Of a stretch of DNA of 64,000 nt, positions 18,749-51,300 are shown piece by piece; positions within the stretch are counted from its first letter, which is position 1; every line of letters begins with the position of its first letter. A model generated the notes under the pieces. That model did not search any database. It saw only the letters and a program-made list of their open reading frames with translations, and was not told where the DNA came from. Both the position numbers and the translations under genes were made by a program. The DNA lies in contig JABAKD010000021.1 in the NCBI GenBank assembly GCA_012845835.1, forward strand, positions 11,705,199-11,769,198, read 5' to 3'. The stretch comes from Undaria pinnatifida (lineage: Eukaryota > Sar > Phaeophyceae > Laminariales > Alariaceae).

Positions 18749-19834
18749 CTACCCCTCCAGCTTTGGAATGGGGTTAACTTGCCCCCAATCTGTACCCTGC
18801 CCCGGCTGGATCCCGTTACCCATCCCCTCCTGGGCCATTACGTTTGCTACCCGGCTGGCATTCTTCCCGTGGCTACGAATGTACGCCTTATAGGCATCAG
18901 ACGCCCACCGGCCCTCCCGTTGCAACGTCTCTGGGGAGGCACCCCCTGCTGATAAGCGCGTTGCGCCCCCAATCCTAAGGGAGTGCAGAGCGTACTCATC
19001 CGCCCGCACGCCCGCCAACGCAACCACTTCTCGCAGGGCTACCGTCGCGTGTTGCTTCGTCCACATGGACCATCTGCCACCACCACTGCCATACGCCACC
19101 AGGGGAGTCGGCGAGGGCAAAAACAAATAACAAGACATCAACTCGAGCATGAGATCGACAGCACCGCCACCGGCCCCCACGGGTGAATCCGCCCGAACGC
19201 GCGAAATAACCGCCCCTTTGCACAACTGGTCGCCGTTAGACCCACGAAATCGAACCTCGACGCGGTCGGCTCTCGACCATTGCGGCACCCCCAACTGTAC
19301 CCGACCGCGAAAGAAAGCCACGTCTGCCCGCCGTAAACAATACGTTTCGTGGATACGCGACCGGGTTTCCGCGAACATTTCCGATGCGCGGGTCAAAAAC
19401 CAAAACGACACACACAACGCAAGCCACAACACGCGCCCCCCGTTACACCAAGCAGGGATCAAAGTTTCGCTAGCAAGCAACATAGCCCACGACACGGGCC
19501 GACGCACGGTCACCTGATTACCCATTTCGGCATGCGAGCGCGCCGCACCTTTGAGGGCGCTCGCGATGACGGGGCGAGTGGTGTCGAGCTCGAAACCGCG
19601 TGATATGCGATGAAAAAACTTGACGGCCGACAGATGGCTTTCGATGGTCGCCGACCGCAGTTTCTTGGTAGCAAACGCGTACGCTACGCACTCAAACGAA
19701 TGCCACACGTTGGTCATATCGTCAATGCCGCGATCAAGGAAGACGGGAACACCAGAACGTACCCGAAAGTCTACCCATGCTCCAAAATGCCCCAAATAAG
19801 CTCGTTCAGTCGAGGCCGCAACGGCGTGTCGCAT
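18749..19834 (-). CDS. Tyrosine recombinase of the Ngaro-like element
   Basis: 361-residue enzyme expected to cut and rejoin DNA through a Tyr-DNA intermediate, inserting the cDNA. The N-terminal half, with STERAYLGHFGAWVDF and SHLSAVKFFHRISRGF, resembles the SAM-like core-binding domain of phage-type integrases. The catalytic half has the first Arg in FWFLTRASEM (about residue 150), the HxxR box in LHSLRIGGATRLS (about residue 293) and the Tyr nucleophile probably in WASDAYKAYIRS (about residue 318), so the R-HxxR-Y set appears complete. The ORF starts 29 bp before the end of the RT ORF, in another frame. Length and order fit DIRS-type recombinases. No frameshift is seen. Confidence 0.88.
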   Translation of the reverse strand: MRHAVAASTERAYLGHFGAWVDFRVRSGVPVFLDRGIDDMTNVWHSFECVAYAFATKKLRSATIESHLSAVKFFHRISRGFELDTTRPVIASALKGAARSHAEMGNQVTVRRPVSWAMLLASETLIPAWCNGGRVLWLALCVSFWFLTRASEMFAETRSRIHETYCLRRADVAFFRGRVQLGVPQWSRADRVEVRFRGSNGDQLCKGAVISRVRADSPVGAGGGAVDLMLELMSCYLFLPSPTPLVAYGSGGGRWSMWTKQHATVALREVVALAGVRADEYALHSLRIGGATRLSAGGASPETLQREGRWASDAYKAYIRSHGKNASRVANVMAQEGMGNGIQPGQGTDWGQVNPIPKLEG

Positions 19835-22202
19835 GAGTCCAAGGCCAACACCGAGTACATAAAGAAATGCCGATGGTCACCAGTTCCCGAACCTGCCACG
19901 GGATGTTGGGACGAACGGCGCGCAAATTATCAAGAACGGAACGACGATCCCAGCGAGAGATACCGTCGGCGGCAGCGTTGTGGGTACCACGCACGTGCGT
20001 TGCCTCGAAATGCCATACGGATGACACTTCGAGAACGCCGAGGAGGCGCATGAGGGCACCGGAACGCGGTTCCAGCCTCCCCCGACACCGCCGTACCCAA
20101 TGCATGGCGGCCTCGTTGTCTCCTCCCAACAAAGCACGATCTCCCGTCGCTGACGGTCGATCGACACACGAAGACACTAGGACAAATTCCGACACAACCA
20201 TGCCCAAAAGTTCAAGAACGTTGATAGATAAGTCGTCCACGCCGCGGACGGACTTACTCAAGCCGCAAAACCGTGACTGTTCCTGGGCTGTGAGATCATG
20301 GCGCCAGTAAACACCGGTTTCGAGACAGTATCCCCCGACGGCGGTTTTTGACGCGTCCGAGAACATCGTACGTTGTGCCGGGCGCTCCAGCAAATGATAC
20401 ATCGGCGCCAACAGCACCCTGCCGCGCGCGTCAACACCTTTGTCGACAAACCACCGCCAAAACTCGAGATCCGCATGGAGCTCGGGCCCAAGGACAACAC
20501 GCCGCCCCGGACTGGCCATTCGGCCAGCGAAGTGATCACCGGCAGCGATGCGCGGCATGCCAACCGAAGCCAACAAACGATGAACGGAGAAAGACCCGGG
20601 ACGAACGGCAAAAGAGATGTGCACGAGGAAACCCGCCAGCTGCGACACCTGCTTCGCTGAAGCATAGGTGCGAGTCGGGGGCCACTCCGCTAAAAGCAAT
20701 CGCAGCTTGAGGCGCTTATGTGACGGCGCCGTCACCGTAAGCGCCTCTGTGTCCATCAAACAGCCCAGCACTTCGAGACGCGTGTCCCAGTTAGTGATTT
20801 TGCTGGCGGACAATAGAGGGGGGTCGGACGCGCCACGTACGCCCAACAAGCGAAAATGGTCCGACGCCAACGACTGCACAGCCCGCATACAGCGACGACC
20901 GTCCGGCCACCACTGAACCTCGACAAGAATGCCGTCGTCTACGTAGTACCGCACGAAAAAACGACTCCCGGCGTAGCCGCCGCTACCGGAAACGGTTCTA
21001 CCATCGCGAGGGAGGGACGCAACCGACCCCCCCCGCGGCGGGGCAAGACGCACATGTTCGACGGCAGCCGCCTCTTGGGGGGAAATAGCCGCATCTTGAA
21101 ACGTAGCGTGGGTGTGGGAATGTTCCAGCACAGAAGCCATCAGCCCCCAGAACCCGGGACTATTATGCCACCCGAACTGCAAGCGAATATCCACAACCAC
21201 GTATTCGCCCATCGCGTACCCAAACACCGGCGCCTCTACCGGTTCAACTAAGACTTGACGATAGGCGTCTTTCAAGTCAACGCGGCAAAGGACGGTTCTA
21301 GCTGTGGGACCGTGCAACTGCCGCAAAAACAACACCCGTAACAACACATCACGGTACACATGACCGAGCTCGCAGGAGGGGGCGGAGGGAAAATCGGTAT
21401 CGTCGTTAACCCTGGAGTGGCCGCCCGCGCGCGCAAACGTGAGATCGTGAATGATGCGAAACTTAGGCTTAAGCACGACGGCCAACGGCAAAACACGCAA
21501 ACCCCGAATATCGGACGCGGAACTTAATTGAAACAACAAAGCCCGACCGTGCACCACGTCAGCACATGTATTTTGGTGAACAGCAACGGCATGGGGGGGG
21601 ACGGTCGGGTGGTTACCGTATGCACGCTCAGCAGTCAAATTAACCCCCCGCGCAACATCCACCGGGGAGCTCGGTGCCAAAACGCGGAGCAACTGGTCAA
21701 CTCGAGGGAAGTTTTTGACGATACCAAACCAATGACGAACGATGTGAGGATGAATATGTGGGGCAATGCGAGCAGACCCGACAGCGGACGTAATCAATAT
21801 AACACTGCCGGCACAGGCACGCAAAAGACACGGCCCCGCGCTGGCAACCACATCGGGATTCCCGGAACCTGTGGACGATACCGACCGCGTTACGCTATCC
21901 TGCGCGGCGCGCCACGCTTCAACCGCCGAATCCAACTGTGCGTGATCGCGCTCGCCGTCGGTCGAGCCGTGTCCGCACCCCCAGTCAAAATCCGAACGTT
22001 GCGGACGTTCGCTATGGCTAACTGTATCTCCGCGCGCGACCGATAAGCCAGTTCCTACAATGCGCGCAGAGACTAACGTACACGCGTGCGCGCTCCCCAT
22101 GGTCACCTCTATTTCCGAAAATGACGGATCCCGGAGCAACGGGTACACGTTTGCGCCCAACGCCGCCTTGCCCGCTAGCGCCGCCAACGCACGCCCCCGC
22201 AA
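19806..22202 (-). CDS. Reverse transcriptase-RNase H polyprotein of the Ngaro-like element
   Basis: 798 residues in one open frame. The RT domain shows CRVDLKDAYRQVLVEP (motif A with catalytic Asp, about residue 315) and FFVRYYVDDGILVEV (motif C, YVDD, about residue 420). RNase H follows with TMFSDASKTAVGGYCLETG (first Asp), a middle LGGDNEAAMHWV and the C-terminal ATHVRGTHNAAADGISR, where His and Asp of the last block are kept. There is no protease or integrase, as expected for DIRS-order elements. The open frame may extend upstream of 22,202; the start is not fixed, since Gag lies in a different frame and expression may need frameshifting or re-initiation. It would copy element RNA into DNA. 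Confidence 0.88.
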   Translation of the reverse strand: MRGRALAALAGKAALGANVYPLLRDPSFSEIEVTMGSAHACTLVSARIVGTGLSVARGDTVSHSERPQRSDFDWGCGHGSTDGERDHAQLDSAVEAWRAAQDSVTRSVSSTGSGNPDVVASAGPCLLRACAGSVILITSAVGSARIAPHIHPHIVRHWFGIVKNFPRVDQLLRVLAPSSPVDVARGVNLTAERAYGNHPTVPPHAVAVHQNTCADVVHGRALLFQLSSASDIRGLRVLPLAVVLKPKFRIIHDLTFARAGGHSRVNDDTDFPSAPSCELGHVYRDVLLRVLFLRQLHGPTARTVLCRVDLKDAYRQVLVEPVEAPVFGYAMGEYVVVDIRLQFGWHNSPGFWGLMASVLEHSHTHATFQDAAISPQEAAAVEHVRLAPPRGGSVASLPRDGRTVSGSGGYAGSRFFVRYYVDDGILVEVQWWPDGRRCMRAVQSLASDHFRLLGVRGASDPPLLSASKITNWDTRLEVLGCLMDTEALTVTAPSHKRLKLRLLLAEWPPTRTYASAKQVSQLAGFLVHISFAVRPGSFSVHRLLASVGMPRIAAGDHFAGRMASPGRRVVLGPELHADLEFWRWFVDKGVDARGRVLLAPMYHLLERPAQRTMFSDASKTAVGGYCLETGVYWRHDLTAQEQSRFCGLSKSVRGVDDLSINVLELLGMVVSEFVLVSSCVDRPSATGDRALLGGDNEAAMHWVRRCRGRLEPRSGALMRLLGVLEVSSVWHFEATHVRGTHNAAADGISRWDRRSVLDNLRAVRPNIPWQVRELVTIGISLCTRCWPWTHATRRCGLD

Positions 22203-22423
22203 ACCGCCCGTGACTCCGGGGACTGCCGGTACGGTCGGCGCTCCGCCAACGTCGACCGTCGACCCAACCCCCCACCAACCGCCAACGCCGCAGCCGCGCC
22301 CCCCGAGATTTGACCCAACACGCGGCCGCCACTCTCAGTTGTTGACGCAGCCGCTACATCCACCGCCGGCGCCGCAGCTGCGCCCGCAAAGGCTGGGCCC
22401 ACCTGGCGGCAGGGCCCGTGTCT

Positions 22424-23329
22424 TCATCCAGAACCAGAACGAGTGCGTCTAACCCCCTCGCCCCCCCTGTTGCCCCCCGCGGGGAGGACCGCACGCAGCG
22501 ACAACGTCCGCGACCCTCCGCCCGCCGCCGCCACGCTTCCACCGCCTTCCTCTCTGCGAGCAGGTGGAGATGGCGAGGATGCCGAGGCCGCGGGGGCCTC
22601 GTGCAGGAACTTACACGGAGACCAGTTGCATTTACCGGTGCGGGCGAACATCCGGCAGACCTGGGGGAGACTTGAAGTGGCCTTTCCCTTGGACCCGGGC
22701 GATCCAGTGGGGGGAGCGGTGGCGTTCCGCTTGGTGGGCCTGTCTGCGCTGGAACCGATGCTGCTGAGTACGAGCCGGAGAACCTCCCCTCCGCCGCGGC
22801 AAAATTCCAGAGTGCACACGAAAGCGGGCATGGGTGGGGGATCGAACACCGTACCAGCTGGGGGAGGGACAACAGCAGGGGAAGACCGCTGCGCAGCACG
22901 CATGAGCTCACTCACCCACAAAGCGATGTCGCGGATAACCATATCACACAGCACTGCATGCGCTTCTGGGACGGACAGCATACTGTAGTTGCTGAATGTG
23001 TGCGCACGCATGCCCATGACCGCCACCGTAAACGCATCGCCAAGGGCGTTGACCCGCGCCAGACAGGGGAGATCGTCGGCGACCCCGGGCGAGAGACCCA
23101 CAGAAAGAATCGCAACGACGGCCAATCTCAAGGGGTCGAGACGGTCGGCGACCATGAGGGGGTGCCCGATGGGCCCGTCCACGCGGGGTCCATAAGCCCC
23201 TACGTCAAAGGAACTGAAGGACCGAAGCTGGGACGCGACGTTGGCTGTCACGTGGATGGTCTCTCCCACAAACGACTGCAGGTCAGCTGGAGAGTCCCCG
23301 AGGTTCGGGGGGATACGCGAATATTCCAC
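22424..23329 (-). CDS. Gag-like protein with CCCH zinc finger
   Basis: About 300 residues preceding the RT ORF, probably the nucleocapsid/capsid protein of the element. Residues around 215-235 contain VCRMFARTGKCNWSPCKFLH, a C-x8-C-x4-C-x3-H finger of the CCCH RNA-binding type rather than the usual retroviral CCHC knuckle. Before it is a helical region with no match I recognise. After it comes a Ser/Pro/Gly/Arg-rich tail that may run on into the pol frame. The displayed start at 23,329 is a GTG; an in-frame TAG lies just upstream, so the true start is downstream ATG or the protein is made by frameshift from the ORF above. Confidence 0.7.
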   Translation of the reverse strand: MEYSRIPPNLGDSPADLQSFVGETIHVTANVASQLRSFSSFDVGAYGPRVDGPIGHPLMVADRLDPLRLAVVAILSVGLSPGVADDLPCLARVNALGDAFTVAVMGMRAHTFSNYSMLSVPEAHAVLCDMVIRDIALWVSELMRAAQRSSPAVVPPPAGTVFDPPPMPAFVCTLEFCRGGGEVLRLVLSSIGSSADRPTKRNATAPPTGSPGSKGKATSSLPQVCRMFARTGKCNWSPCKFLHEAPAASASSPSPPARREEGGGSVAAAGGGSRTLSLRAVLPAGGNRGGEGVRRTRSGSG

Positions 23330-23355
23330 AGCTTCCTAGCTGTGTTGACCTTGTT

Positions 23356-23763
23356 TCAAGTGGTCATTTTGATGTCAAGTCGTGCTTTCTGGCGCTGCCG
23401 TTCCTGAGCGTCGCCGTCGTCTCGGGAGGCTACCCGACCAGAGTTGTTCTCCACGAACTGTCGAACCATGATGTCGAGAATAGCTACCTGATCAGCGCAG
23501 GCAGCCGCTACCTCGCGGGAGGAAGAAGCGATCGCCGATAACTCGGCAATTTTTTCGTCAAGGCACTTATGAATCTGCGCAAATTCGGCTTCAACCTGTC
23601 GGGCCCACGTGGCCCAGTCATCCGAGGGCAAGGCCGCACCGACCGCTGGTGCCCCGGAGGAGGACCCCGAGCCCGCGAGAGCTGCGGCGGGCGGGGCACG
23701 CAGAGTAGCCTCCGCCTCAGCGCTGGCGGCGACAGGCGCCGCGGCACCCGGCGAATCACCCAT
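23356..23763 (-). CDS. Small 5' ORF of the Ngaro-like element
   Basis: 135 codons starting with ATG (MGDSPGAAAPVAASAEAEAT). The first third is rich in Ala, Ser, Gly and Pro. The middle, WATWARQVEAEFAQIHKCLD and the following KIAELSAIASSSREVAAACA, looks like a coiled coil, suited to multimerisation. It ends 27 bp before the Gag-like frame, in a different frame. It may be the N-terminal part of Gag split by an old frameshift, or a separate protein. Confidence 0.55.
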   Translation of the reverse strand: MGDSPGAAAPVAASAEAEATLRAPPAAALAGSGSSSGAPAVGAALPSDDWATWARQVEAEFAQIHKCLDEKIAELSAIASSSREVAAACADQVAILDIMVRQFVENNSGRVASRDDGDAQERQRQKARLDIKMTT

Positions 23764-23893
23764 CGTCGAAGAGACAGCCCGCAGCGCTCGCCACAGCAGT
23801 AATCACAGCGAATTATCACCACGGCAGTCACCACAGCAGTCCCAGCGAAGTCTTACAGCAGCAGTCGCAGCGAAGCTCACTTACAGCAGAAAT

Positions 23894-24130: not shown

Positions 24131-24623
24131 TCACTGTTCATATTATAGTCTGCAGTAAGTTGCACAAAAGTAAGACGACAATTGTAAGGACGTGTTCGAA
24201 GGGTCGATAGACTACTCATCTTTGCAAGCTGCGTACTAAAAATCGATCGCCCGTCTTTAGTAAGTTTCATAAATCAAACCCTAAGATGTCATTGTATTGT
24301 GTTACCTATCATATAGACTATATATTGTACGTGCAGCAGTACTGACAATCAATGCAGCGCCAAACAAAGGCGTTGTCGTTCTGCTTTCCCCAGCACATAC
24401 TACGTACGGGTAGTCTGCGTGTGCGATTTACTACTATACTGCTGTACGTAGGTCTTGGGTGATTGATTGAACCGATGCACCAGTGACTTCCAGGTAGGTT
24501 AGGGTTCCAATTGATGAGTGGGACAGCTTCGAGGGAAACAATTATAATACGGCACCAAGCAGTCTTCATTGATTTGCTAGCATTTTGCCATGTTTGCGCC
24601 ACTTGTTTGGTCGGGTTTGGCTG
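24131..24623. other. Unassigned spacer
   Basis: Between the Ngaro-like element and the GTT array. A fragment related to repeat B (CTCATCTTTGCAAGCTGCG, near 24,215) is present; no gene is supported. Confidence 0.4.
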
Positions 24624-25041
<418 letters not shown>

Positions 25042-25310
25042 TTGTGGTGGTGTTTTGCTCTTGCTTGTTCAGATGATTTCACTTAATACTGTTGGCGTTG
25101 CGATACGGCCCGGATGCAGAGCACCTTCAGCCGGGTGTCCCGCCATCGTTCATTCTGCCTGCGCTACGCCCAACCTCCCGATGCACACCGACAAACATGG
25201 CCGAAGCGCCCGTCCACCTTCCCATCAGTGCTAAACCTATCCTACTCTAACTCAACGTAGTTTCCCAAAAATTATGAAGCAGTAGTATATCTTATGTAGC
25301 ACGAAATGGC

Positions 25311-25370: not shown

Positions 25371-25837
25371 GCTGCACTGCAGTGGAAAGGCACCCGAGAA
25401 GCTGGGACTTGGCGCAAGCCGTCTGTCGTGTTTGCCGGCAATATGTGCTACAACAGTATACGCGTAGCCGATCAACAGTGTGGGACTCAATCGTTCGGCA
25501 AATCAGGGTGCCGATTAAAGCAAAGTGTTTCTCGCGAGAGTCATGCCTGGAGGTGGTTTGGAAAATGAACGACTCAGGCAAAAACTAAGATAGACGAGAT
25601 TGGAAAGGGCCGTGAGTTCTCGGACTATAAGTCGCCGATTAGGCATGCGTTGGGCACTAATATTAATGGTACTGTACCTGGTATATGGTCTATAAAAGAC
25701 CGACTCAGATAGTGGGCTTTTACTCCGTCACCGAAGTAATACCTAGCCGTGAAGTCTTTTAAGAAGGATCGTTCCCAACGAAAGTAAAAACTCACAATCG
25801 ATTCCTGACAAATAGCAATTATAAGATGTCAAGTGTC

Positions 25838-26030
25838 AAGATACGGCCTCGAAAGGCCTGTAATTATCCGAATTTGAATTCATTTGGATGGATTTCGTAT
25901 GACGAGGTTGGCGTTTTATATTCGGGAAAGTTAGGAAATAGATCGGGGGCACGTGCCTCCGATCTCAGAAGCCACCCGGGGCTCTGGTGGAATCAAATAA
26001 AGCTACGTCTCTACGAAGGCAAAGAAACAC
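25838..26030 (+). repeat. LTR-like left end with palindrome
   Basis: The stretch from AAGATACGGCCTCGAAAGGCC to CGTCTCTACGAAGG recurs inverted at about 50,375-50,550 and in part directly at 50,649-50,745. It contains the 16-bp palindrome GGAGGCACGTGCCTCC (one mismatch here), a TATA-like GTTTTATATTC upstream of it and AATAAAG downstream, in the order expected for promoter and polyadenylation signals of an LTR. The distant copies begin TGTTAAGATACGG, and TG is the usual first dinucleotide of LTRs. The Gag ATG follows at 26,032. Confidence 0.55.
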
Positions 26031-26031
26031 C

Positions 26032-26948
26032 ATGTCTACCAGTGACGACGCGGGCTACTCGGGCAGACTGCGGTCCTCCACGCGCCCCATCCAGGAGGCC
26101 CAGGGAGAAGGAAGGGAACGCTCGAGGTCCCGCGAGTCGAGACGAGGAGGACAACGTGACGAGAACCTCCACGACGACAGCGACACCAACACGAGTCACC
26201 CCCAAGGCACACCGACCGACCGACTCGACTCGCCGGTCCAGGAGGAGGAGGCGGAAAAACCCCTACCGGGCGCGGGGGCATCTAGACGCCAAATATCGCC
26301 TGCCTCGAGGGAGCGCCACCAGCTGACCTCCTCACACTCGACAGAGCACCACCGCCGACACTTGGACTCTCCGCGCTCGACAGAGCGCCTCTCTCAGAGC
26401 TTCGGAGACCAGGGCACCCATGCCGGCCCCTCAGACTCCGCGTCTGAATTTCTCGGACCCAGCGAGCATTCGACGACGCAAACGCGACCCTGCACCGGCG
26501 TGAGGAACGCAGACGGCACGATGACGAACGTCGATGCCGCGAGGATGAAGCCCTCGACCCGGCGAGGGCCGCTGCTCGCGAGGCGTCCCGCGCGGTAGAG
26601 AGGGCGCGCCAAGCCATTGCCCTCTCAGCTGCGTCGACTGCGGCGAAAGCTACCCCGCTCCCGGCGCGCCCCCTGGGCATTGCCTCCCAGGATATACGAC
26701 CCGGGGACGACGCGTTCATGTCCGGCAGCGTGCAATACATGGCGACCACGCCGACGGTAGAGTTCTCGGCGGATCTGGCGGCGGCGGTGGTAGCAGCGGC
26801 GACGATCCTCCTAACGTCAGAGCAACGGTCGTCATTCAGGGCGGAAAACCTTTCGGTCGGAGCGGTCTGGGCCCGCCGCGACAACAATTCCGCCTTCGGA
26901 CAGATGAGGCGAGCACCTACCCTCGCCTTGCTCAAAGCCTCAATTTAA
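26032..26948 (+). pseudogene. Gag N-terminal region, frameshifted
   Basis: ATG at 26,032 opens MSTSDDAGYSGRLRSSTRPI, followed by an Arg/Ser/Glu-rich disordered region to about 26,480. From there the likely coding frame moves by one. The shifted frame reads DDERRCREDEALDPARAAAR and ASRAVERARQAIALSAA, a clear heptad-like coiled coil, then continues through 26,718-26,948 to a stop. At least one indel therefore broke the original frame. Basic and coiled-coil segments suit RNA binding and Gag assembly. There is no enzymatic motif. Confidence 0.5.
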
Positions 26949-26950
26949 GA

Positions 26951-27640
26951 TTGGCCCACAACGACGCCCCCGACCCAGTACTCTGGCCGACCCCAAAGGA
27001 AGCGCTGGAGGGAAGGCGCGAAACCAAACAGCGGCGCGGTGGCAGCCACGATCGGGGGGACCGCAACCGTGGAGGTGGTAGCTCCGGGGATGGTGGCGGC
27101 CAGACTGGGGGAAACGGGGAAAGTCGTGGGGGTGGTGGCCACCACAACCGCTGCGGGGGTGGCAACGATGGTGGAAGCGCGGGAGGAGCGTCGGGTACTG
27201 GCGGTGGCCCAGAGCGCCGCCAAGGGAGCAACCAGGCCCGAACCATCCGGAGCGGCGGCCGCAGCTCGGGAGGAAGCATCGGAGGACGACAGAACAGCGC
27301 ACGAGGGCCTTCAGCGTGGGACGGCTCGTCAACCTCCTCCCGCTCGTCTTCGAGCTCGAACACGGGCGGCGGCGAGGTGACAGTGGTAGCCGGCAAGAGG
27401 CAAGTAACTCCTTCCCTAGTGGATATTGCTTCCTCCGCTGAACGGCTGAGCAAACTGACTGTGTCGGGTGACCACACCAAGCCTGTTTCTTCGGATTTGG
27501 CCCGCGAGCGTACCGCCGAACTTGCTACCGCCGAGGCTCTAGCCAAATCCACGCTTGATGACTCGGGTAGGCGTGTCTATGTTCAGCTCTCTCCAAGGAC
27601 GTATCCCGAATTTCTGTGCTTCCGTTCCCCGCCTCTTTGA
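26951..27640 (+). pseudogene. Gag middle region, Gly-rich linker
   Basis: Open frame with a Gly/Arg/Ser/Asn-rich stretch (about 27,030-27,360), then VDIASSAERLSKLTVSGDHT and an Ala/Glu-rich helical region ending near 27,640. In one alternative frame the Gly-rich section reads as Ala/Val-rich, so which frame was coding there is uncertain. The segment joins the coiled coil to the capsid-like part. Not recognisable as a known domain. Confidence 0.4.
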
Positions 27641-28191
27641 ACAAGTCTGACGGCACACAGCAACTCGCACGTTCGGTTCGGTTTGCAATGACTGACATGC
27701 TCATGCGCTGCGACGACCGTTGCCAAGAGGGCGTACGTGCGCCCACGTGGGTACCCGGTTGGATCCACCCCTTCCGCCTGGCATTCAACCGTGCCATAAC
27801 ACCTGACAGGCCCACGACCGCCCGCATGACCACTTTGATCGACGATTTCTTCGGGCAGGTGTCAAGAGCGTTGGACGGCGGAGCATCTGGGCCCGAGGCC
27901 TTCACCCTCCTGCTACGCCTGCTCGTGACGCACTTCGACCGGGTCGACACCGGGGAAGGCTACACTAAGCTGCATGCTTTTGGAGTGTGTAACGACACGC
28001 CTTATTTTGACTTTTTCCGGAAGTTCCGTGTGCTAGTATCGGCAGTCAGGAGGAGTGAGCTTGTTTTGTCTCCGGGACGGATGTGGTGTTGGAGGTGGTT
28101 AGGGTGGCGGTCAACGAGCAGTTTCCGACGCTCATACCTACGTTGTACACTGGCTCAAAGGCTACGGATCCACGGCCATATGCCTCGTTAG
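27616..28191 (+). pseudogene. Capsid-like segment of Gag
   Basis: Up to about 28,060 the frame encodes a helical protein with FAMTDMLMRCDDRCQEG, WVPGWIHPFRLAFNRAI, GPEAFTLLLRLLVTHFDR and DTPYFDFFRKFRVLVSAVRR. Position between coiled coil and zinc knuckle, and the even pattern of hydrophobic helices, suggest capsid; this is inference from order. After 28,070 the frame turns into unlikely sequence (CWRWLGWRS), and the original frame appears to continue shifted (VVLEVVRVAVNEQFPTLIPT) before being lost near 28,260. Confidence 0.5.
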
Positions 28192-28417
28192 TGACTTAGC
28201 GCACAATAAGACACCTGCCGTCAACGGGGAAAAAAAAAATTATCTACCTGTTTCTTCGACGGGAACGCGGTCGCCCGCCCCGTCGGGGCCCCGGCCCGCC
28301 GTTTATGGGCACGGGCAGGGTTGAGTACCGTCCCAGTCGCCTTCTTAGCAGACAGGTTCGAGCCATAATCCGATTGTCATTTCGATTACTGATTCCACCG
28401 ACCCCTGGCTCGACAAA

Positions 28418-29116
28418 ATGTTCAACTGCTGGCCCTTAGAAGAACAACACTATGCAGAAGGTTTCGCTGTTAGTGCCTCGGTTAAGACCGACGACCCTCC
28501 CCTCTGGAGCGGCCTCCTCACGCCCTCTGCCCGCGCCGCGGCTCTCCGAGAAAACCGGGGTCATTGCCTCAACTGTCACGAAGACACTCACCCCTTACGC
28601 AACTGTAGGCATCCCTTTATTAACGCCAGCGGCTGTCTAAACCTTGAACTCGGCCGACTCGGCGATGATGACGTTTTCCGACGGTGGCAAGCACGTATGG
28701 TTAGCTACCGCCGCGACGGAAGGTCTTCTCGCTCGCAAACCTCCAACAAAAATCACCGAAATCGTTCAAACCAATCACAAGCGTACCACCAGGACCAGGG
28801 ACAGATAAACAGCCACAGCGGTAACCACAACAACTCATACACGCCCGGTCAACATGGTGCTGTCCCACCCTCGCCAGCCTCCTCGGCTTCCGCGTCTGCT
28901 CTGGGGACGCAACTCGGGGCAACCCAAAATCCGAGCGGAAACCCCAACGCGCCAACCAGGTATCTTTCGCACCGGCAACTGACAGCGCGATGGCGGTACG
29001 GCACACCCGACCCGTACGCCGACGGCACTGTCGGGAACACGTCCTTTGGTTTCGCAAAATGCTCGAGTGCCTGTTGTTTGCCTTATGCGTGGCGCGGCAC
29101 AAATAATTGCTGTTGA
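28418..29116 (+). pseudogene. Gag nucleocapsid with CCHC zinc knuckle
   Basis: 232-codon open frame. At about residues 50-63 it has HCLNCHEDTHPLRNC, a C-x2-C-x4-H-x4-C knuckle, the RNA-binding motif of retroviral and LTR-retrotransposon nucleocapsids. Before it is WSGLLTPSARAAALRENRGH; after it are LGDDDVFRRWQARMVSYRRD and a long Ser/Asn/Gln/His-rich disordered tail. It shows that this element's Gag ends here, upstream of the NADAR domain. The open frame seems to begin at an ATG inside Gag and not at a true start. Confidence 0.7.
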
Positions 29117-29262
29117 GAGCCCACGGGCGCCTACGCCGTCCGCTGACGATCTTCACGGCGTAGTATCGGCGGTGGGGATCAGCGCTCCCAGCATGCCCCC
29201 CCCCAGCCAGGTTACATCTTCTACGAAGGGAGTACGCGCTCACAGCGACGCCCCCCTCGATC

Positions 29263-29913
29263 ATGGTTCGAGTTCGGCAACGGGAACCCGCGCCCCTGAC
29301 CCGCGCCCCCAGCGCCGTCACCCCCTGCCGTGGCTCAAACTCGACAATGGGGGCACGCGCCCCTAGCGCTGCCCCCTTCAACCATGACACAGGAGCCTGC
29401 ACCTCGCACGCTCCCCCCAGACACGCGTCGCGCAGCAAGAAAGCTGCGGCGACGACGCGTCGCCCTCATACGCGAGCGGGTTCGTCTCCACTTCCTCCTG
29501 ACCGTGAAGCGGCGGTTGGTTTGAAGTGTGGGAAAGCCAACCCAAATACACCGAGATATTTTACGAGATTCGATCCGGTGTTTCCTCGATATAGTAGCGG
29601 GCGCTCTATCCTTTTTCCCATCAAGGAGGAGCCGACAAGCTTAGCTACCTCGTCTCTTTCCTCTAAGAGGGTTAACGGGAACGAGCCTCCTCGGGCGTAT
29701 GATATATTTCCACTTGCCCGAGCCCCGCTCTCGAAGACGCCCACAGGGTCTACGGGCCCTGCTCCGTCTTTAGGCACGCTAACCCACGTGCACCAGGCTA
29801 CGTCTGCCCCAGTGGCACGAGATCGAGATCCGACACTGCGCAACGGGCCAGTGGTGACGTCACGCCCTCCAGACCGATCAGCTGGACGCTATTCCCGTGA
29901 AGATACGGAATAA
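29263..29913 (+). pseudogene. Low-complexity linker between Gag and NADAR
   Basis: Pro/Ala/Ser/Arg-rich frame with repeated GARAP/TRAPS-like units (29,190-29,400, from a short DNA repeat around GCGCGCCCCTGACC) and then a more ordered part, YFTRFDPVFPRYSSGRSILF and IKEEPTSLATSSLSSKRVNG. No domain is recognised. It probably was a disordered spacer of the polyprotein. Confidence 0.35.
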
Positions 29914-30138
29914 TCGCGCCTCTTGTCAAGCAGTAACAACTCCGAGCCTCCTGCCCCTTCGGACGCATTGAGTGCAGTTTCTTGCGATTTTTCGCCGAAG
30001 AGCGACAAGAGCACGACACGACCACCCGTGGGTTCGGGCTCGCGCCGTGCTCCCGAGGCCGGGCGTTCCTAGACGGGGACGCTGCCGGCCCAAAGTGCCG
30101 GAGACTGGTGTTCCCAGACGGGGACATTACAGGCTCAT

Positions 30139-30690
30139 ATGCCTAACATGGTCTCCGACGGGTTGGCACCTTCGACTTTTGATCCTTCCCTCGAATACTC
30201 CACAGACAAAGTAGTGTTTTTCTGGCAACCGCCATCCTTTTTCTCGCAGTGGTCTCCTTCGTGGTTTGTCGTCGACGACGTCTCATATTCTTGCGCGGAG
30301 CAGTTTATGATGGCCGAAAAGGCTCTGCTTTTTAAAGACCATCGCGCAGTGGAGCTCATCATGTCATCGTCTGGCCCCAGCATACACGAACGCGTCGGTC
30401 AAGGCGAGCGCAACTTTAAACCCGCTGGTTGGGACGAAGAGAAGCACAATGCCGTGTTATCTGGCAACTATTGTAAATTTACGCAGAACCCAGCCATAAA
30501 ACTCCACCTTTCGAGCACTACTGGCAATAAACTTTTGGCAGAGGCCAGCCCTCTGGACCCAGTGTAGGCGTATTGATCTCCTGGCGGACGACCCCCCCGC
30601 CAAGGATCCACACAAGTAGAGAGGTAAACATTGTTTGGTGAGGCACTCTCTGCCGTTCGCGATGCATTTCGCGACAGCGAGGCCGGATCG
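30139..30690 (+). pseudogene. NADAR (YbiA/DUF1768) domain in the retroelement
   Basis: NADAR enzymes act on ADP-ribose or ribose-nucleotide N-glycosidic bonds: YbiA/RibX-type members cleave early riboflavin intermediates, and some bacterial members remove ADP-ribose from guanine in DNA, as antitoxins of DarT1. The open part (30,139-30,567) contains, in family order, VVFFWQPPSFFSQWSPSWFV, VDDVSYSCAEQFMMAEKALL, the middle GPSIHERVGQGERNFKPAGW, then LSGNYCKFTQNPAIKLHLSS and LLAEASPLDPV. After DPV, where the family has Trp-Gly/Ala, there is TAG. Beyond it, after a one-base shift, the C-terminal block continues (IDLLADDPPAKDPHK, a second TAG where Trp is expected, then FGEALSAVRDAFRDSEAG). So the whole domain was once present and is now broken near its end. 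Frame and spacing place it between Gag and protease. Confidence 0.85.
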
Positions 30691-30837
30691 CCACACCCGG
30701 CCTCCCCTCGTCAATTCCGCAGCCCCATCGGGAATGCTGGAATCCACGAAATCTCTTCCGCTCAGCAGTCGCGCTTGGGGACCGCGGTCGGCGCTGACCA
30801 AGGCCCTCCTTCGGCCTTTTTTTTTGGGTGCACCCAC

Positions 30838-31310
30838 TGACCAAAGCCCGGAGGTTTTGGCGATAGCTTCTCGCGGCGCTTCAGACCGTGCACTGCCAGA
30901 ACATGGCCCCTGCCTCGTCGGGGGTACCGTGACGCCGGACGACGTTTCTTTCACTACCGATATTGCAATACATAGCGGAGGAGACGCCATGGCGCCCTAC
31001 AGGTGTACGGCGCTCCTCGACACTGGCTCCCCCCAAAACCTTCATCCGACGTGACGTGTTGGATCGTATGCTATCGGTAGGCGCCGCCTCATCGGCGTGC
31101 GAGCGGCCCAACAGCCCTCGCTCCTGGGGTGGTTGGCGAATCCGCCCCTTTGCGGACCGCGACCCACATCCGTCTGAGCGTTTAATTCTTCCACTAAAAA
31201 GAACCGACGTGCTCTGTCGCGGTGTGAGCATGCGTGGTCCCTCCATCGGTCATGGTCAAGTTTCAATGTTTTTGGTGTTCGTTGGAAATTGCCCTAAGTC
31301 AGAGCCCTAA
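30838..31310 (+). pseudogene. Retroviral-type aspartic protease, frameshifted
   Basis: Frame 30,635-31,054 reaches YRCTALLDTGSPQ, the catalytic DTG-Ser box of a retropepsin, preceded by a beta-rich VTPDDVSFTTDIAIHSGGDA. Within the next codons an indel moves the frame: the +1 shifted frame carries TFIRRDVLDRMLSVGAASS, the natural continuation. A third frame carries the later WACVVPPSVMV strand. The protease would have processed the Gag-NADAR polyprotein. It is inactive as it stands. No RT is found beyond 31,310. Confidence 0.65.
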
Positions 31311-48327: not shown

Positions 48328-51300
48328 CTGCAAAACAAAAAAGAAAAACGAAAGCAAAAAAAAAAAAAAAAGTTGCACGATAAAAAAAGTTGCACGATAA
48401 AAAAGTCAAAAATCAGGCCATTGCTCCTCGCCTGCAAAACAACGAAAAGAAGAAAGAAAATATGCACAATTAAAAACACAAACATCAATCAGGCCATTGC
48501 TCTTCGCCTGAAAAGCAAAAAAGAAAGAAAAGACAGATGCACGATCAAGTTTTTCAGATCATTGCTCTTCGCCTGCAAGACAATTGAAGGGAAAATAATG
48601 TGTATGATCTCCAGAAATTCGGTCGTTGCTCTTCGCCTGCAAAATCCAGAAGAAGAAAGAAAATAAAATATGCAAGATTAAAACATCAGAAAAATGCCGG
48701 TTGCTCGTCGCCTTCAAATCCCGAAAGAAGAAGAAAGGAGAAAGAAAATATTCACGATAAAAAAAAACTCAGAAATCAGGCCATTCATTGCTCTTCGCCT
48801 GCAAAACCGAAAAAAGAAGAAACAAATAAAAGATGCACGACTAAACAATCAGAACTCAGGCCATTGCCCTTCGCCTGCAAGCCAATTAGAGGAAGGAGCA
48901 GATGTATCGCACGTTTGAAAAATCAGAAATCAGGCCATTCATCTTCGCCTGAAAACAAAAAAAGAAAGAAAATATGCACCATTAAAAAAAATCAGAAATG
49001 AATCAGGCCATTCATCTTCGCCTGAAAACAAAAAAAGAAAGAAAAATTTGCACCATTAAAAAAAATTAAAAAATCAATCAGGCCATAATTGACGTTCGCC
49101 TGAAAACAAGAAAAAAACGAAACGCAAAGATGCACGTTCAGACTAAGCAAACAGAAATCATGCCATTCATTGCTGTTCGCCTGCAACACCCAAAGGAAGA
49201 AGAAATAAGAAAGAAAGAAACGATTCACGATTGAAAAACTCAGAAATCCATTGCCCTTCGCCTGCAAAATAAAAAAAAAGGACGAACGAAAGTAAAGATG
49301 CACGATTAAAAACTCAGAGATCCATCGCCCTTCGCCTGCAAAACAGAAAAAAAAGAACGGAAGAAAGCAAAGATGCACGAATGAAAAATCAGAAATCAGG
49401 CCATGGCTCTTCGCCTTGCAAAACTAAAAAAGGAAGAAGGAAAAATGTGGATGCACGATAAAAAAACAGAAACCATAAATCAGGCCGATGCTCTTCGCCT
49501 GCAAGACAAACAAAAAGAAACAAACACAAAAAGAAAAGATGCATGATTACGAAATAAAAAAAAATCAGGCCGCTGCTCTCTTCCTTCTTCGCCCGCAAAA
49601 CCAAAACAAAGGAAGAAGAGAAATAAGAGAAAAAGAGTGCACAACGGTAGAAAAAAAAAATCCGAAAAAAAAAAATTCGATATTTTCGCGGCGAGGGTGT
49701 TTTTTTCGACGTGTCCTACGATAGAGGTACACCACGTTTTTTGTCTTAATACTACCCCTCACTTGAGGAGCTTAAGACATTGCCCTTCTTAACCACAAAA
49801 AACAGACTTGATCCCGGATGAAACACATCCCACCCATGGCCTAGGTACACACGAAAAAAAAAATGGCCTATTAATATAGTTCCGACGATTTTTTTCTTGG
49901 TTAGAGAAGCCCCGGTCGTTCAGAAAACCCCTTCAGACGAAAACTGATACCTACTCGCACGTATGTTAAGGTATTAGTGGGGTATTAGTCCGTTTGACCA
50001 CTTGCAAAAGGTTTACCAATAGCTTACCCAAACTTAAGCCTTATAAACACTCTCCCGCCCCCTGAAACGGCGGGACAGCAGGTCGGCCGGATGTACGGGC
50101 GGACCTGTCAATTATCCAAGCCGTTTCATTTCCTGGGTATACCGGGGAGAGTATTTTTCAAGTTCGATCATGGGGTAAGTCTGAAGAAGTTTATTATGGT
50201 GAATGTGGGATTTGAACCCACGACCCCAAAAAAACATGGTCTGTCGACGACGCCATTTGTTAAGGATATTAGTGGGGTTTTTGTAAGGTTACAGGTGGGG
50301 ACGCAGAGTGCCCCCTGCAGGTCTGCCAATTGAGCAGGTCCTCGGAGAGTACTCACTTTATTTTCCTTCGTAGAGACGTAGCTTTATTTGATTTCACCAG
50401 AGCCCCGGATAGCTTCTGAGATCGGAGGCACGTGCCTCCGATCTATTCCCTGACTTCCCCGAATATAAAACGCTAACTTATCATACGAAGCCCATCCAAA
50501 TGATCTCAAATTTGGATAATTACAGGCCTTTCGAGGCCGTATCTTAACATATTAGTCCGTTTGACCGCTTGCAATAGGTCAACCAATAGCTTACCCAAAC
50601 TAAGCCTCATAACACGTAGCTCTACATCGTGGCACGCGTCCTTCACAGAAAGTTAGGAAATAGATCGGAGGCACGTGCCTCCGATCTCAGAAGCTATCCG
50701 GGGCTCTGGTGGAATCGAATAAAGCAACGTCTCCACGAAGGAAAAGAAAGCGAGTACTCTCCGAGGACCTGCTCAATTGGCCGATGTTAAGGTGTTAGTG
50801 GGGTATTAGTCCGTTTGACCACTTTCAAAAGGTTAACCAATAGCTTACCCAAACTTAGCCTTATAAACACTCTTCCCCCCTGAAGCGGCCGGATACCAGG
50901 TCGGCCGGATATACGGGCAGACCTGTCAATATCCAAGCCGTTTCATTTCCTGGGCATACCGGGGAAAGTATTTTTCAAGTTCGACATGGGGAAAATCTGA
51001 AAAAGTTTATTATAAAAAATGAAAATACACTCCAGCTGTGAGATCGAAGATTTCGTCGAAACTCATCTTTGCAAGCTGTGTGAGATACTTTATTGTGGTG
51101 GACGTGGGGCTCGAACCCACGACCCAAAAAACCCATGGTCCTGTCGACGACGCCATTTTGAAGGTATTATTAGTGGGGTATTAGTCCGTTTGACTACTTG
51201 CAAAAGGTTAACCTATAGATTACCCAAACTAAGCCTTATAATATAGACCTGCAGGGGGCACTCTGTGTCCCCACCTATAACCTTACACTCGCCCCGAAAA

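What the first reader, a model, noticed from the sequence alone, without database searches (positions are those of the whole stretch)
30139..30690. NADAR domain carried between Gag and protease of a retroelement
The block contains the NADAR signature in order (WQPPSFFSQWSPSWFV, SCAEQFMMAEKALLF, LSGNYCKFTQNP, LLAEASPLDPV) on the same strand as a CCHC zinc knuckle before it and a DTG protease after it. NADAR enzymes hydrolyse N-glycosidic bonds of ADP-ribose or riboflavin intermediates and in bacteria undo guanine ADP-ribosylation as DarT1 antitoxins. A retroelement with its own NADAR could reverse a host ADP-ribosylation defence on its RNA or cDNA, or tap NAD metabolism during reverse transcription. 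The role is inference. I do not know whether such fusions have been reported.
Basis: partly seen in the sequence, partly recalled or inferred. Interest (0 to 1): 0.88.

Follow-up and report, generated by a model that had tools for sequence, protein, structure and literature searches.

The report
Kelp retrotransposon carrying a NADAR enzyme
The window holds a decayed, cut-short copy of a Ty3/Gypsy retrotransposon of a farmed brown seaweed whose polyprotein carries a bacterial-type NADAR enzyme domain just before its protease; this kind of fusion was already reported in 2025 for another brown alga, so it is real and odd but not new.

Summary
The block is a NADAR domain (Pfam E 1.6e-27) between a CCHC Gag and a DTG protease. 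This copy is a fossil: Gag, NADAR and protease are broken by frameshifts and stops, and it ends at 31254 before RT. The host assembly, almost surely Undaria pinnatifida, gave 150 scored NADAR matches, all over cut-off. Fuller copies have Gag, a UGA in the same frame (20 of 30 loci), then an open Pol frame NADAR-PR-RT-RH-IN. The kind is in print: one Ectocarpus Gypsy lineage carries NADAR at the N-terminus of Pol (PMC12477816). Added here: a second genome, Gag and the UGA junction, ADP-ribose contacts kept in 35 chosen copies with 3 exceptions (R93 is K in one class), a tree placing most element NADARs beside Myxococcota/Planctomycetota, and a class whose NADAR disagrees with its RT, not significantly. 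Likely role, inferred: a hydrolase packaged with Gag-Pol that removes ADP-ribose from nucleic acid or clears ADP-ribose compounds, as retroviral dUTPase works from that slot.

The parts
25834..26027 (+). remnant of the 5' LTR (starts TGTCAAGATACGG), joined directly to Gag with the leader missing
   Evidence: 90.2% and 93.1% matches to repeats at 50357-50549 and 50648-50749; same start (TGTTAAGATACGG) as the 267/267 identical LTR pair of copy A; match to copy A's Gag start begins only at 26028. The joining deletion is inferred.
26032..28979 (+). Gag, broken by frame changes (ATG 26032, last codon 28977-28979)
   Evidence: P0124 maps to 26718-28979 in frames 3,2,1,3,2,3; 26028-26147 matches L120 at 91.7%; ATG read
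28565..28606 (+). CCHC zinc knuckle CLNCHEDTHPLRNC
   Evidence: sequence; the CCHC pattern is found in 5 of 6 Gag relatives
28980..28982 (+). UGA stop between Gag and Pol, followed by CAG, same frame on both sides
   Evidence: 20 of 30 loci have the same TGA-CAG junction
28983..30216 (+). Pol N-terminal linker between Gag stop and NADAR, broken here; two copies of a TGTL(P/Q)A repeat before NADAR, seen by eye and not reported by Tandem Repeats Finder
   Evidence: open and 407 aa long in L093
30217..30660 (+). NADAR domain (YbiA type), intact frame to 30567, remainder in other frames with stops
30661..30799 (+). linker between NADAR and protease
   Evidence: alignment to P0123
30800..31254 (+). 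aspartic protease region with ALLDTGS (DTG 31019-31027), frame change after the motif, stops further on
   Evidence: tblastn with P0123
31254..31254 (+). break point: the element ends here, RT/RH/IN missing
   Evidence: alignments to 7 printed loci of 30 all end at 31254; no P0122 RT/IN match in the window

Best explanation
The block is the NADAR domain of the Pol polyprotein of a Ty3/Gypsy retrotransposon; this copy is an old 3'-truncated relic in a kelp genome, almost surely Undaria pinnatifida. In fuller copies Gag ends in UGA and Pol continues in the same frame as linker, NADAR, protease, RT, RNase H and integrase (shown). I infer that Pol is made as a Gag-Pol readthrough product, that NADAR is thereby taken into the particle and freed by the adjoining protease, and that it works there or in the reverse-transcription complex as an N-glycosidase / ADP-ribosyl hydrolase. 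Its substrate would be ADP-ribose on guanine of the element's RNA or cDNA, or small ADP-ribose compounds. It is a hygiene or counter-defence enzyme in the slot where betaretroviruses carry dUTPase. Likelihood by step: anatomy 0.97; domain catalytically competent in intact copies 0.75; packaged with Gag-Pol 0.6; nucleic-acid de-ADP-ribosylation rather than a small-molecule substrate 0.35.
For: NADAR hit; Gag, NADAR, PR mapping. Host genome: 1454 first-look candidates, 150 scored, all over cut-off, 9 of the 150 in open frames of 2473 aa and 5 in frames of 2371 aa. RT, RH, IN and tail follow in the NADAR frame; in 5 of 6 downstream stretches a frame of 1402-1415 aa is open, Pfam domains. RT closest to Ty3 among solved structures. 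LTR pair 267/267 identical in copy A. Gag-UGA-Pol junction in 20 of 30 loci and in class-1 copy L147. Fold of relative P0123's NADAR matches ADP-ribose-bound 8BAU (Foldseek E 6e-13) and YbiA 2B3W (E 8.6e-9). Contact residues named in PMC11543638 (passages) are kept in 35 genomic copies of two classes except 3 cells, with R93 as K throughout class 0. Guanine-ADPr hydrolysis by several NADARs including YbiA: PMC11125620 (passages). dUTPase position and virion NC-dUTPase: PMC8961515 (passages). Host PARP (1 partial match) and macro (3 partial matches).
Against: No activity, packaging or readthrough was measured. The 35 copies were taken from the best NADAR matches and mostly for open frames, which favours kept residues. 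Of the five copies looked at upstream, only copy C shows Gag in one frame over the length of P0124; A, D and E change frame or lack parts and B lacks the N-terminal part. NADAR changes faster than RT between the two classes (pN/pS 0.51 against 0.21, pS near saturation). In 123 database proteins W89 is kept in 60 of 100 and is G in 24 mutually similar ones, so a multiplied subfamily lost a contact residue. RNA folding after the UGA is not better than shuffles (z -1.07, 0.54, 0.74). No DarT match in the host. The window copy has Q at R79 and a stop before W133, so it is dead.
Confidence: 0.55

Rival explanations
1. NADAR acts on small ADP-ribose or NAD-derived molecules (signals or by-products), not on nucleic acid, and helps the element by lowering a host signal or feeding NAD salvage.
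For: PMC9503650 (passages) argues this for viral NADARs, phage ones above all; a planctomycete relative (L037) sits near genes with cytidylyltransferase-like, NAD-kinase and AAA plus cytidylyltransferase-like domains (NadR-like is my label).
Against: The same paper argues for macromolecular targets in eukaryotic RNA viruses, whose polyproteins carry NADAR along with the polymerase, the closer parallel to Pol.
Confidence: 0.3
2. NADAR is a binding or structural module of Pol (RNA or ADP-ribose binding, assembly), its catalysis unimportant.
For: W89G subfamily multiplied; NADAR evolves faster than RT; nematode SNA-3 NADARs act in trans-splicing, enzyme activity not shown (PMC9303266 passages).
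Against: E43, K50, E125, D130, W133 kept in 35 genomic copies with 3 exceptions although the two classes are only 48.7% identical in the domain; the 35 were chosen from the best matches.
Confidence: 0.12
3. Chance capture or juxtaposition of a host NADAR gene near a decayed Gag; not part of an element.
For: The window copy alone is broken and lacks RT.
Against: Of the 30 loci cut out of 150 scored matches, PR lies downstream in 30 and a Gag match in the locus in 26; of 20 further stretches, PR in 20 and RT in 19; Ectocarpus proteins P0121 and P0122 join NADAR to RT.
Confidence: 0.01
4. Bacterial contamination or an assembly artefact.
For: The relatives found outside the elements are bacterial or in viral contigs.
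Against: Many dispersed copies on chromosome-size contigs with Gag-PR-RT context and two proteins named as Ectocarpus.
Confidence: 0.01

Closest known systems
NADAR-carrying Ty3/Gypsy lineage of Ectocarpus (e.g. Gypsy-12_Ec32, PMC12477816)
   Same: Ty3/Gypsy element of a brown alga with a YbiA-type NADAR at the N-terminus of Pol; bacterial affinity of the domain; Ectocarpus protein P0122 shares 62% (NADAR) and 72% (RT+RH) with copies of this genome; putative C-terminal chromodomain there, weak Chromo hit here (E 0.027)
   Different: Another species; the window copy is truncated. In what I read of that paper (section 5 part 1 and passages) the Gag-UGA-Pol junction, contact residues and class discordance are not described. 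Its figures, supplements and consensus elements were not seen.
Tx1 LINEs of Pacific oyster with NADAR-like ORF1 (PMC12477816)
   Same: a retrotransposon that carries a NADAR
   Different: non-LTR element, divergent domain, known to me from that paper only; not tested here
YbiA subfamily NADARs, e.g. E. coli YbiA and Phytophthora nicotianae NADAR (8BAU)
   Same: fold, E125-type glutamate and other ADP-ribose contacts
   Different: stand-alone proteins; this one is a polyprotein domain
Betaretroviral dUTPase (MMTV, MPMV)
   Same: an acquired nucleotide-hygiene enzyme at the N-terminus of the protease region, carried into the virion (PMC8961515 passages)
   Different: unrelated fold and chemistry; an analogy only
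DarT1-NADAR toxin-antitoxin
   Same: NADAR superfamily, guanine de-ADP-ribosylation
   Different: BC4488 subfamily with Asp; no DarT match in this genome

Membership tests
Ty3/Gypsy (Metaviridae) | Pol order PR-RT-RH-IN | tested here: met
   met in fuller copies of the genome; the window copy stops after PR
Ty3/Gypsy (Metaviridae) | RT closest to Ty3 | tested here: met
   PDB best hits Ty3 Gag-Pol and RT/RNase H, E about 4e-65; no tree of Gypsy lineages was made
Ty3/Gypsy (Metaviridae) | flanking LTRs | tested here: met
   copy A: 267/267 identical, TGTTAAG...TTTCACA; E: 487-bp pair at 95.7% starting TGTAATA, with much of Gag missing; D: only 92 bp shared, identical; B and C: no clear pair. 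The window has only a 5' remnant. Target-site duplications not settled.
Ty3/Gypsy (Metaviridae) | Gag with CCHC and DTG protease | tested here: met
   Pfam sees no Gag domain and only a trace of Ty3 peptidase (E 0.35)
Ectocarpus NADAR-Gypsy lineage | RT falls in the same lineage of the Gypsy tree | tested here: inconclusive
   72% RT+RH identity to P0122, but their consensus elements were not available and no RT tree was made
Ectocarpus NADAR-Gypsy lineage | C-terminal chromodomain | tested here: inconclusive
   Chromo E 0.027 in L121, below cut-off; none listed for L129
NADAR superfamily | PF08719 over cut-off and YbiA fold | tested here: met
   (fold tested on relative P0123)
YbiA subfamily | catalytic Glu in the last strand | tested here: met
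   E125 in the window, in 34 of 35 genomic copies, in 42 of 47 database proteins covering it
YbiA subfamily | N-glycosidase / guanine-ADPr hydrolase activity | not testable with these tools
   needs a bench assay
BC4488 / DarT1-associated NADAR | Asp in place of Glu and a DarT partner | tested here: not met
   Glu; DarT 0 matches in the host, six frames without introns

The most novel reading that the evidence does not exclude
Kelp Ty3/Gypsy elements package a bacterially derived de-ADP-ribosylase by UGA readthrough to erase ADP-ribose marks that the host puts on retroelement RNA or cDNA, which would imply an ADP-ribosylation-based defence against retroelements in brown algae. One element class (L147 type) would even have replaced its NADAR by a second bacterial capture in the same slot: its RT+RH is closest to the other kelp class (77% against 72% to Ectocarpus), while its NADAR is nearer to bacteria (52-54%) than to either (48-49%).
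Probability: 0.2. Interest if true: 0.85.

Novelty: new member of a known kind. Interest (0 to 1): 0.5.

Why it matters
It shows in a second brown alga that a NAD/ADP-ribose enzyme is a lasting part of a retroelement polyprotein, with its active site kept between classes only 49% identical in the domain. That makes a precise question testable: do eukaryotic hosts mark retroelement nucleic acid with ADP-ribose, and do elements erase it? The NADAR domain and the Gag-UGA-Pol junction can both be assayed on their own.

Tried and rejected
Chance or host-gene juxtaposition: rejected by the genome-wide context. DarT1-antitoxin model: rejected as membership (Glu not Asp). Viral-contig origin: the 5 IMG/VR rows used fall outside the element+Myxococcota/Planctomycetota clade (of 9 loci, L004 and L005 give one protein, L008 and L009 give one protein; L002 and the L008/L009 protein were left out there). 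YarT partner next to the myxobacterial relatives: ORFs within 1.2 kb in 12 loci were listed; only those of L037 were profile-tested; none recognised as an ART by eye. Pfam on the protease piece of P0123: nothing at E<=10. Structure of P0123: nearly all of it beyond NADAR, the protease included, has pLDDT under 50, so the protease fold is not confirmed. LTRs of copies B and C: no clear pair. Readthrough structure: no excess folding. Single clade for element NADARs: one search gives one clade 99/92 with 15 element rows (4 of the 19 dropped), 43 of 80 bacterial and 5 of 7 distinct viral rows; adding class-1 copies breaks it, while the AU test does not reject one clade (p 0.439), nor the clade joining the two kelp classes (p 0.129 and 0.14). 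An 8BAU fragment had an end branch of 4.5 and places nothing. dN/dS could be had for only 9 pairs shared by NADAR and RT, all with L168 (NADAR median 0.256, RT 0.402), so it says little.

Full report
OBSERVATION. The ORF at 30073-30567 (+) matches NADAR (PF08719) with 97.2 bits, E 1.6e-27, covering profile positions 1-127 of 163. It stops at 30565-30567; the remaining C-terminal part is readable to about 30660 but in other frames with stops. Upstream, a 762-aa Gag relative from a public assembly (P0124) maps to 26718-28979 in six pieces and three frames at 81-91% identity and carries the same kind of CCHC knuckle. Downstream, the DTG region matches P0123, a 608-aa protein with NADAR and LLDTGS protease in one frame. 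P0122, an Ectocarpus protein with NADAR, RT, RNase H and integrase domains, matches the window in NADAR only, apart from one stray 21-residue piece at E 0.42.

HOST AND COPY NUMBER. The window lies in a 511,146,479-base assembly of 68 contigs. Contig C34 is 16,510,065 bases long, exactly the scaffold N50 given for Undaria pinnatifida, whose scaffolds total 511,280,173 bases in 114 pieces (PMC7058681 passages); the totals differ slightly, and I take it as that species. The NADAR profile gave 1454 first-look candidates; 150 were scored, all over the cut-off; 9 lie in open frames of 2473 aa and 5 in frames of 2371 aa. A DNA search with window 30073-31254 scored 40 of 956 candidates; apart from the window itself the best copies are 91% identical, so the window copy is an old relic of a family with much younger members (five 2473-aa copies compared over 5 kb downstream are 97.7-98.7% alike where listed, four stretches).

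ANATOMY OF FULLER COPIES. In the 30 loci cut out (the best scoring of the 150), the protease follows NADAR on the same strand in 30, and a Gag match lies in the same locus in 26 (side and strand not checked in that count); in 20 further stretches starting at NADAR, PR is found in 20 and RT in 19. Separate stretches around five copies (A-E) show Gag, NADAR, PR, RT, RH, IN and tail in order; of six downstream stretches five have an open frame of 1402-1415 aa and L131 (copy E) is broken. Gag is less well kept: only copy C has it in one frame over the length of P0124; A, D and E change frame or lack parts, B lacks the N-terminal part. Pfam confirms RVT_1, RNase H domains and integrase; Chromo is weak (E 0.027), Ty3 peptidase weaker (E 0.35), Gag pieces give nothing. 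The nearest solved RT is Ty3. Gag ends ...GN-UGA-CAG and Pol continues in the same frame in 20 of 30 loci; L147 of the other class has UGA-AGA in frame; the window has UGA-CAG too. In L093 407 aa lie between the UGA and the NADAR profile start, with the first methionine at 70. In copy A a 267-bp LTR pair is identical, spanning about 15.5 kb; the 3' LTR follows a GGGTGGGCTA purine-rich stretch (polypurine tract is my reading). Copy E has a 487-bp pair at 95.7%, copy D shares only 92 identical bases, B and C show no clear pair. The stretches upstream of copy A and of the C30:20109847 copy contain an 84-bp tandem array (L120, L122). The window's 25834-26027 is such an LTR start, joined to Gag at 26028.

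ACTIVE SITE. PMC11543638 (passages) names E43, K50, R79, W89, R93, E125, D130, W133 as ADP-ribose contacts in P. nicotianae NADAR; chain 8BAU is numbered two higher. In 35 genomic copies (23 of class 0, 12 of class 1; taken from the best matches and mostly for open frames) these are kept except three cells (one K50N, one E125G, one E43K), with K at R93 throughout class 0. In 123 database proteins: E43 94 of 108, K50 106 of 118, R79 102 of 107, W89 60 of 100, R or K at 93 86 of 96, E125 42 of 47, D130 38 of 52, W133 33 of 37, gaps set aside; 24 mutually similar proteins have G at W89. Among these fragments the sites are not uniformly better kept than other columns: W89, R93 and D130 rank low, E43, K50 and R79 high. 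The window copy has Q at 79 and ends before 133. A model of P0123 gives pLDDT mostly 94-99 over NADAR and matches 8BAU and YbiA in Foldseek. Between classes pN/pS is 0.51 for NADAR, 0.40 for PR, 0.21 for RT with pS near saturation: constraint on the site, faster change around it.

ORIGIN. Most 'element' rows are database fragments called so by similarity; RT or PR context was seen for P0121, P0122, P0123 and the genomic copies. Adding class-1 copies puts them on a long branch outside the other element NADARs; one clade is not rejected (p-AU 0.439). Class 1 RT+RH is 77% identical to class 0 and 72% to Ectocarpus, but its NADAR is 48.7% and 48.3% to those and 52-54% to bacteria; forcing the two kelp classes together is not rejected (p-AU 0.129 and 0.14). 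A swap or second capture is thus a lead, not a result. No stand-alone algal NADAR was in any tree.

PRIOR WORK. [quoted passage not shown] Listings for other reports (20 of 104 shown, 20 of 97, 15 of 15, 2 of 2, of which PMC7290008 was not opened) showed no other retroelement NADAR paper by title or abstract start. So the kind is known; Undaria is a new member as far as those listings reach.

MECHANISM. Shown: gene order, UGA junction, retained contacts, fold of a relative. Inferred: readthrough, packaging, release by PR, hydrolase action. NADARs hydrolyse guanine-ADP-ribose (PMC11543638; PMC11125620; passages). NADAR in RNA virus polyproteins is argued to target host ADP-ribosylation of macromolecules (PMC9503650, passages). 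Betaretroviral dUTPase sits at the N-terminus of the protease region and enters the virion fused to nucleocapsid (PMC8961515, passages), a good analogy for an enzyme kept in this slot. The host has one partial PARP match and three partial macro matches and no DarT match (six-frame search without introns).

VERDICT. Real, well supported, and already described in kind. Interest comes from making an untested link between ADP-ribosylation and retroelements approachable.

Noticed in passing
window 18749-23802 (-): A second retroelement: a 375-aa ORF with a weak phage-integrase (tyrosine recombinase) hit (E 0.056), an 842-aa ORF with a YVDD motif (no RT profile hit) and an upstream ORF with a weak CCCH hit (E 0.025); looks like a DIRS/Ngaro element (label recalled, no profile over cut-off).
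   Followed up: no
window 50322-50784: Two inverted fragments of the same LTR as at 25834-26027, with the palindrome AGATCGGAGGCACGTGCCTCCGATCT.
   Followed up: partly
L147 / G000:C25:11999038: Class-1 elements: RT close to class 0 but NADAR unusually divergent and nearer to bacteria; possible domain swap or second capture, not significant in AU tests.
   Followed up: partly
L120, L122 (upstream of two class-0 copies): 84-bp tandem array of 13-20 units, in copy A between 5' LTR and Gag; function unknown.
   Followed up: no
database proteins P0018, P0025, P0031, P0049 and 20 others: A subfamily of 24 proteins with G in place of the ADP-ribose-contacting W89, so elements multiplied with an altered site.
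   Followed up: partly
L037 (Planctomycetaceae): NADAR gene near a cytidylyltransferase-like/NAD-kinase gene and an AAA/cytidylyltransferase-like (NadR-like, my label) gene, a NAD-metabolism setting for a close bacterial relative.
   Followed up: partly
P0097 (database protein): NADAR preceded by a stretch that looks like Copia RT, probably a nested insertion (by eye).
   Followed up: no
window about 24580-25050: Long (GTT/TGT)n microsatellite just upstream of the element, giving spurious polyV/polyC/polyT ORFs.
   Followed up: no
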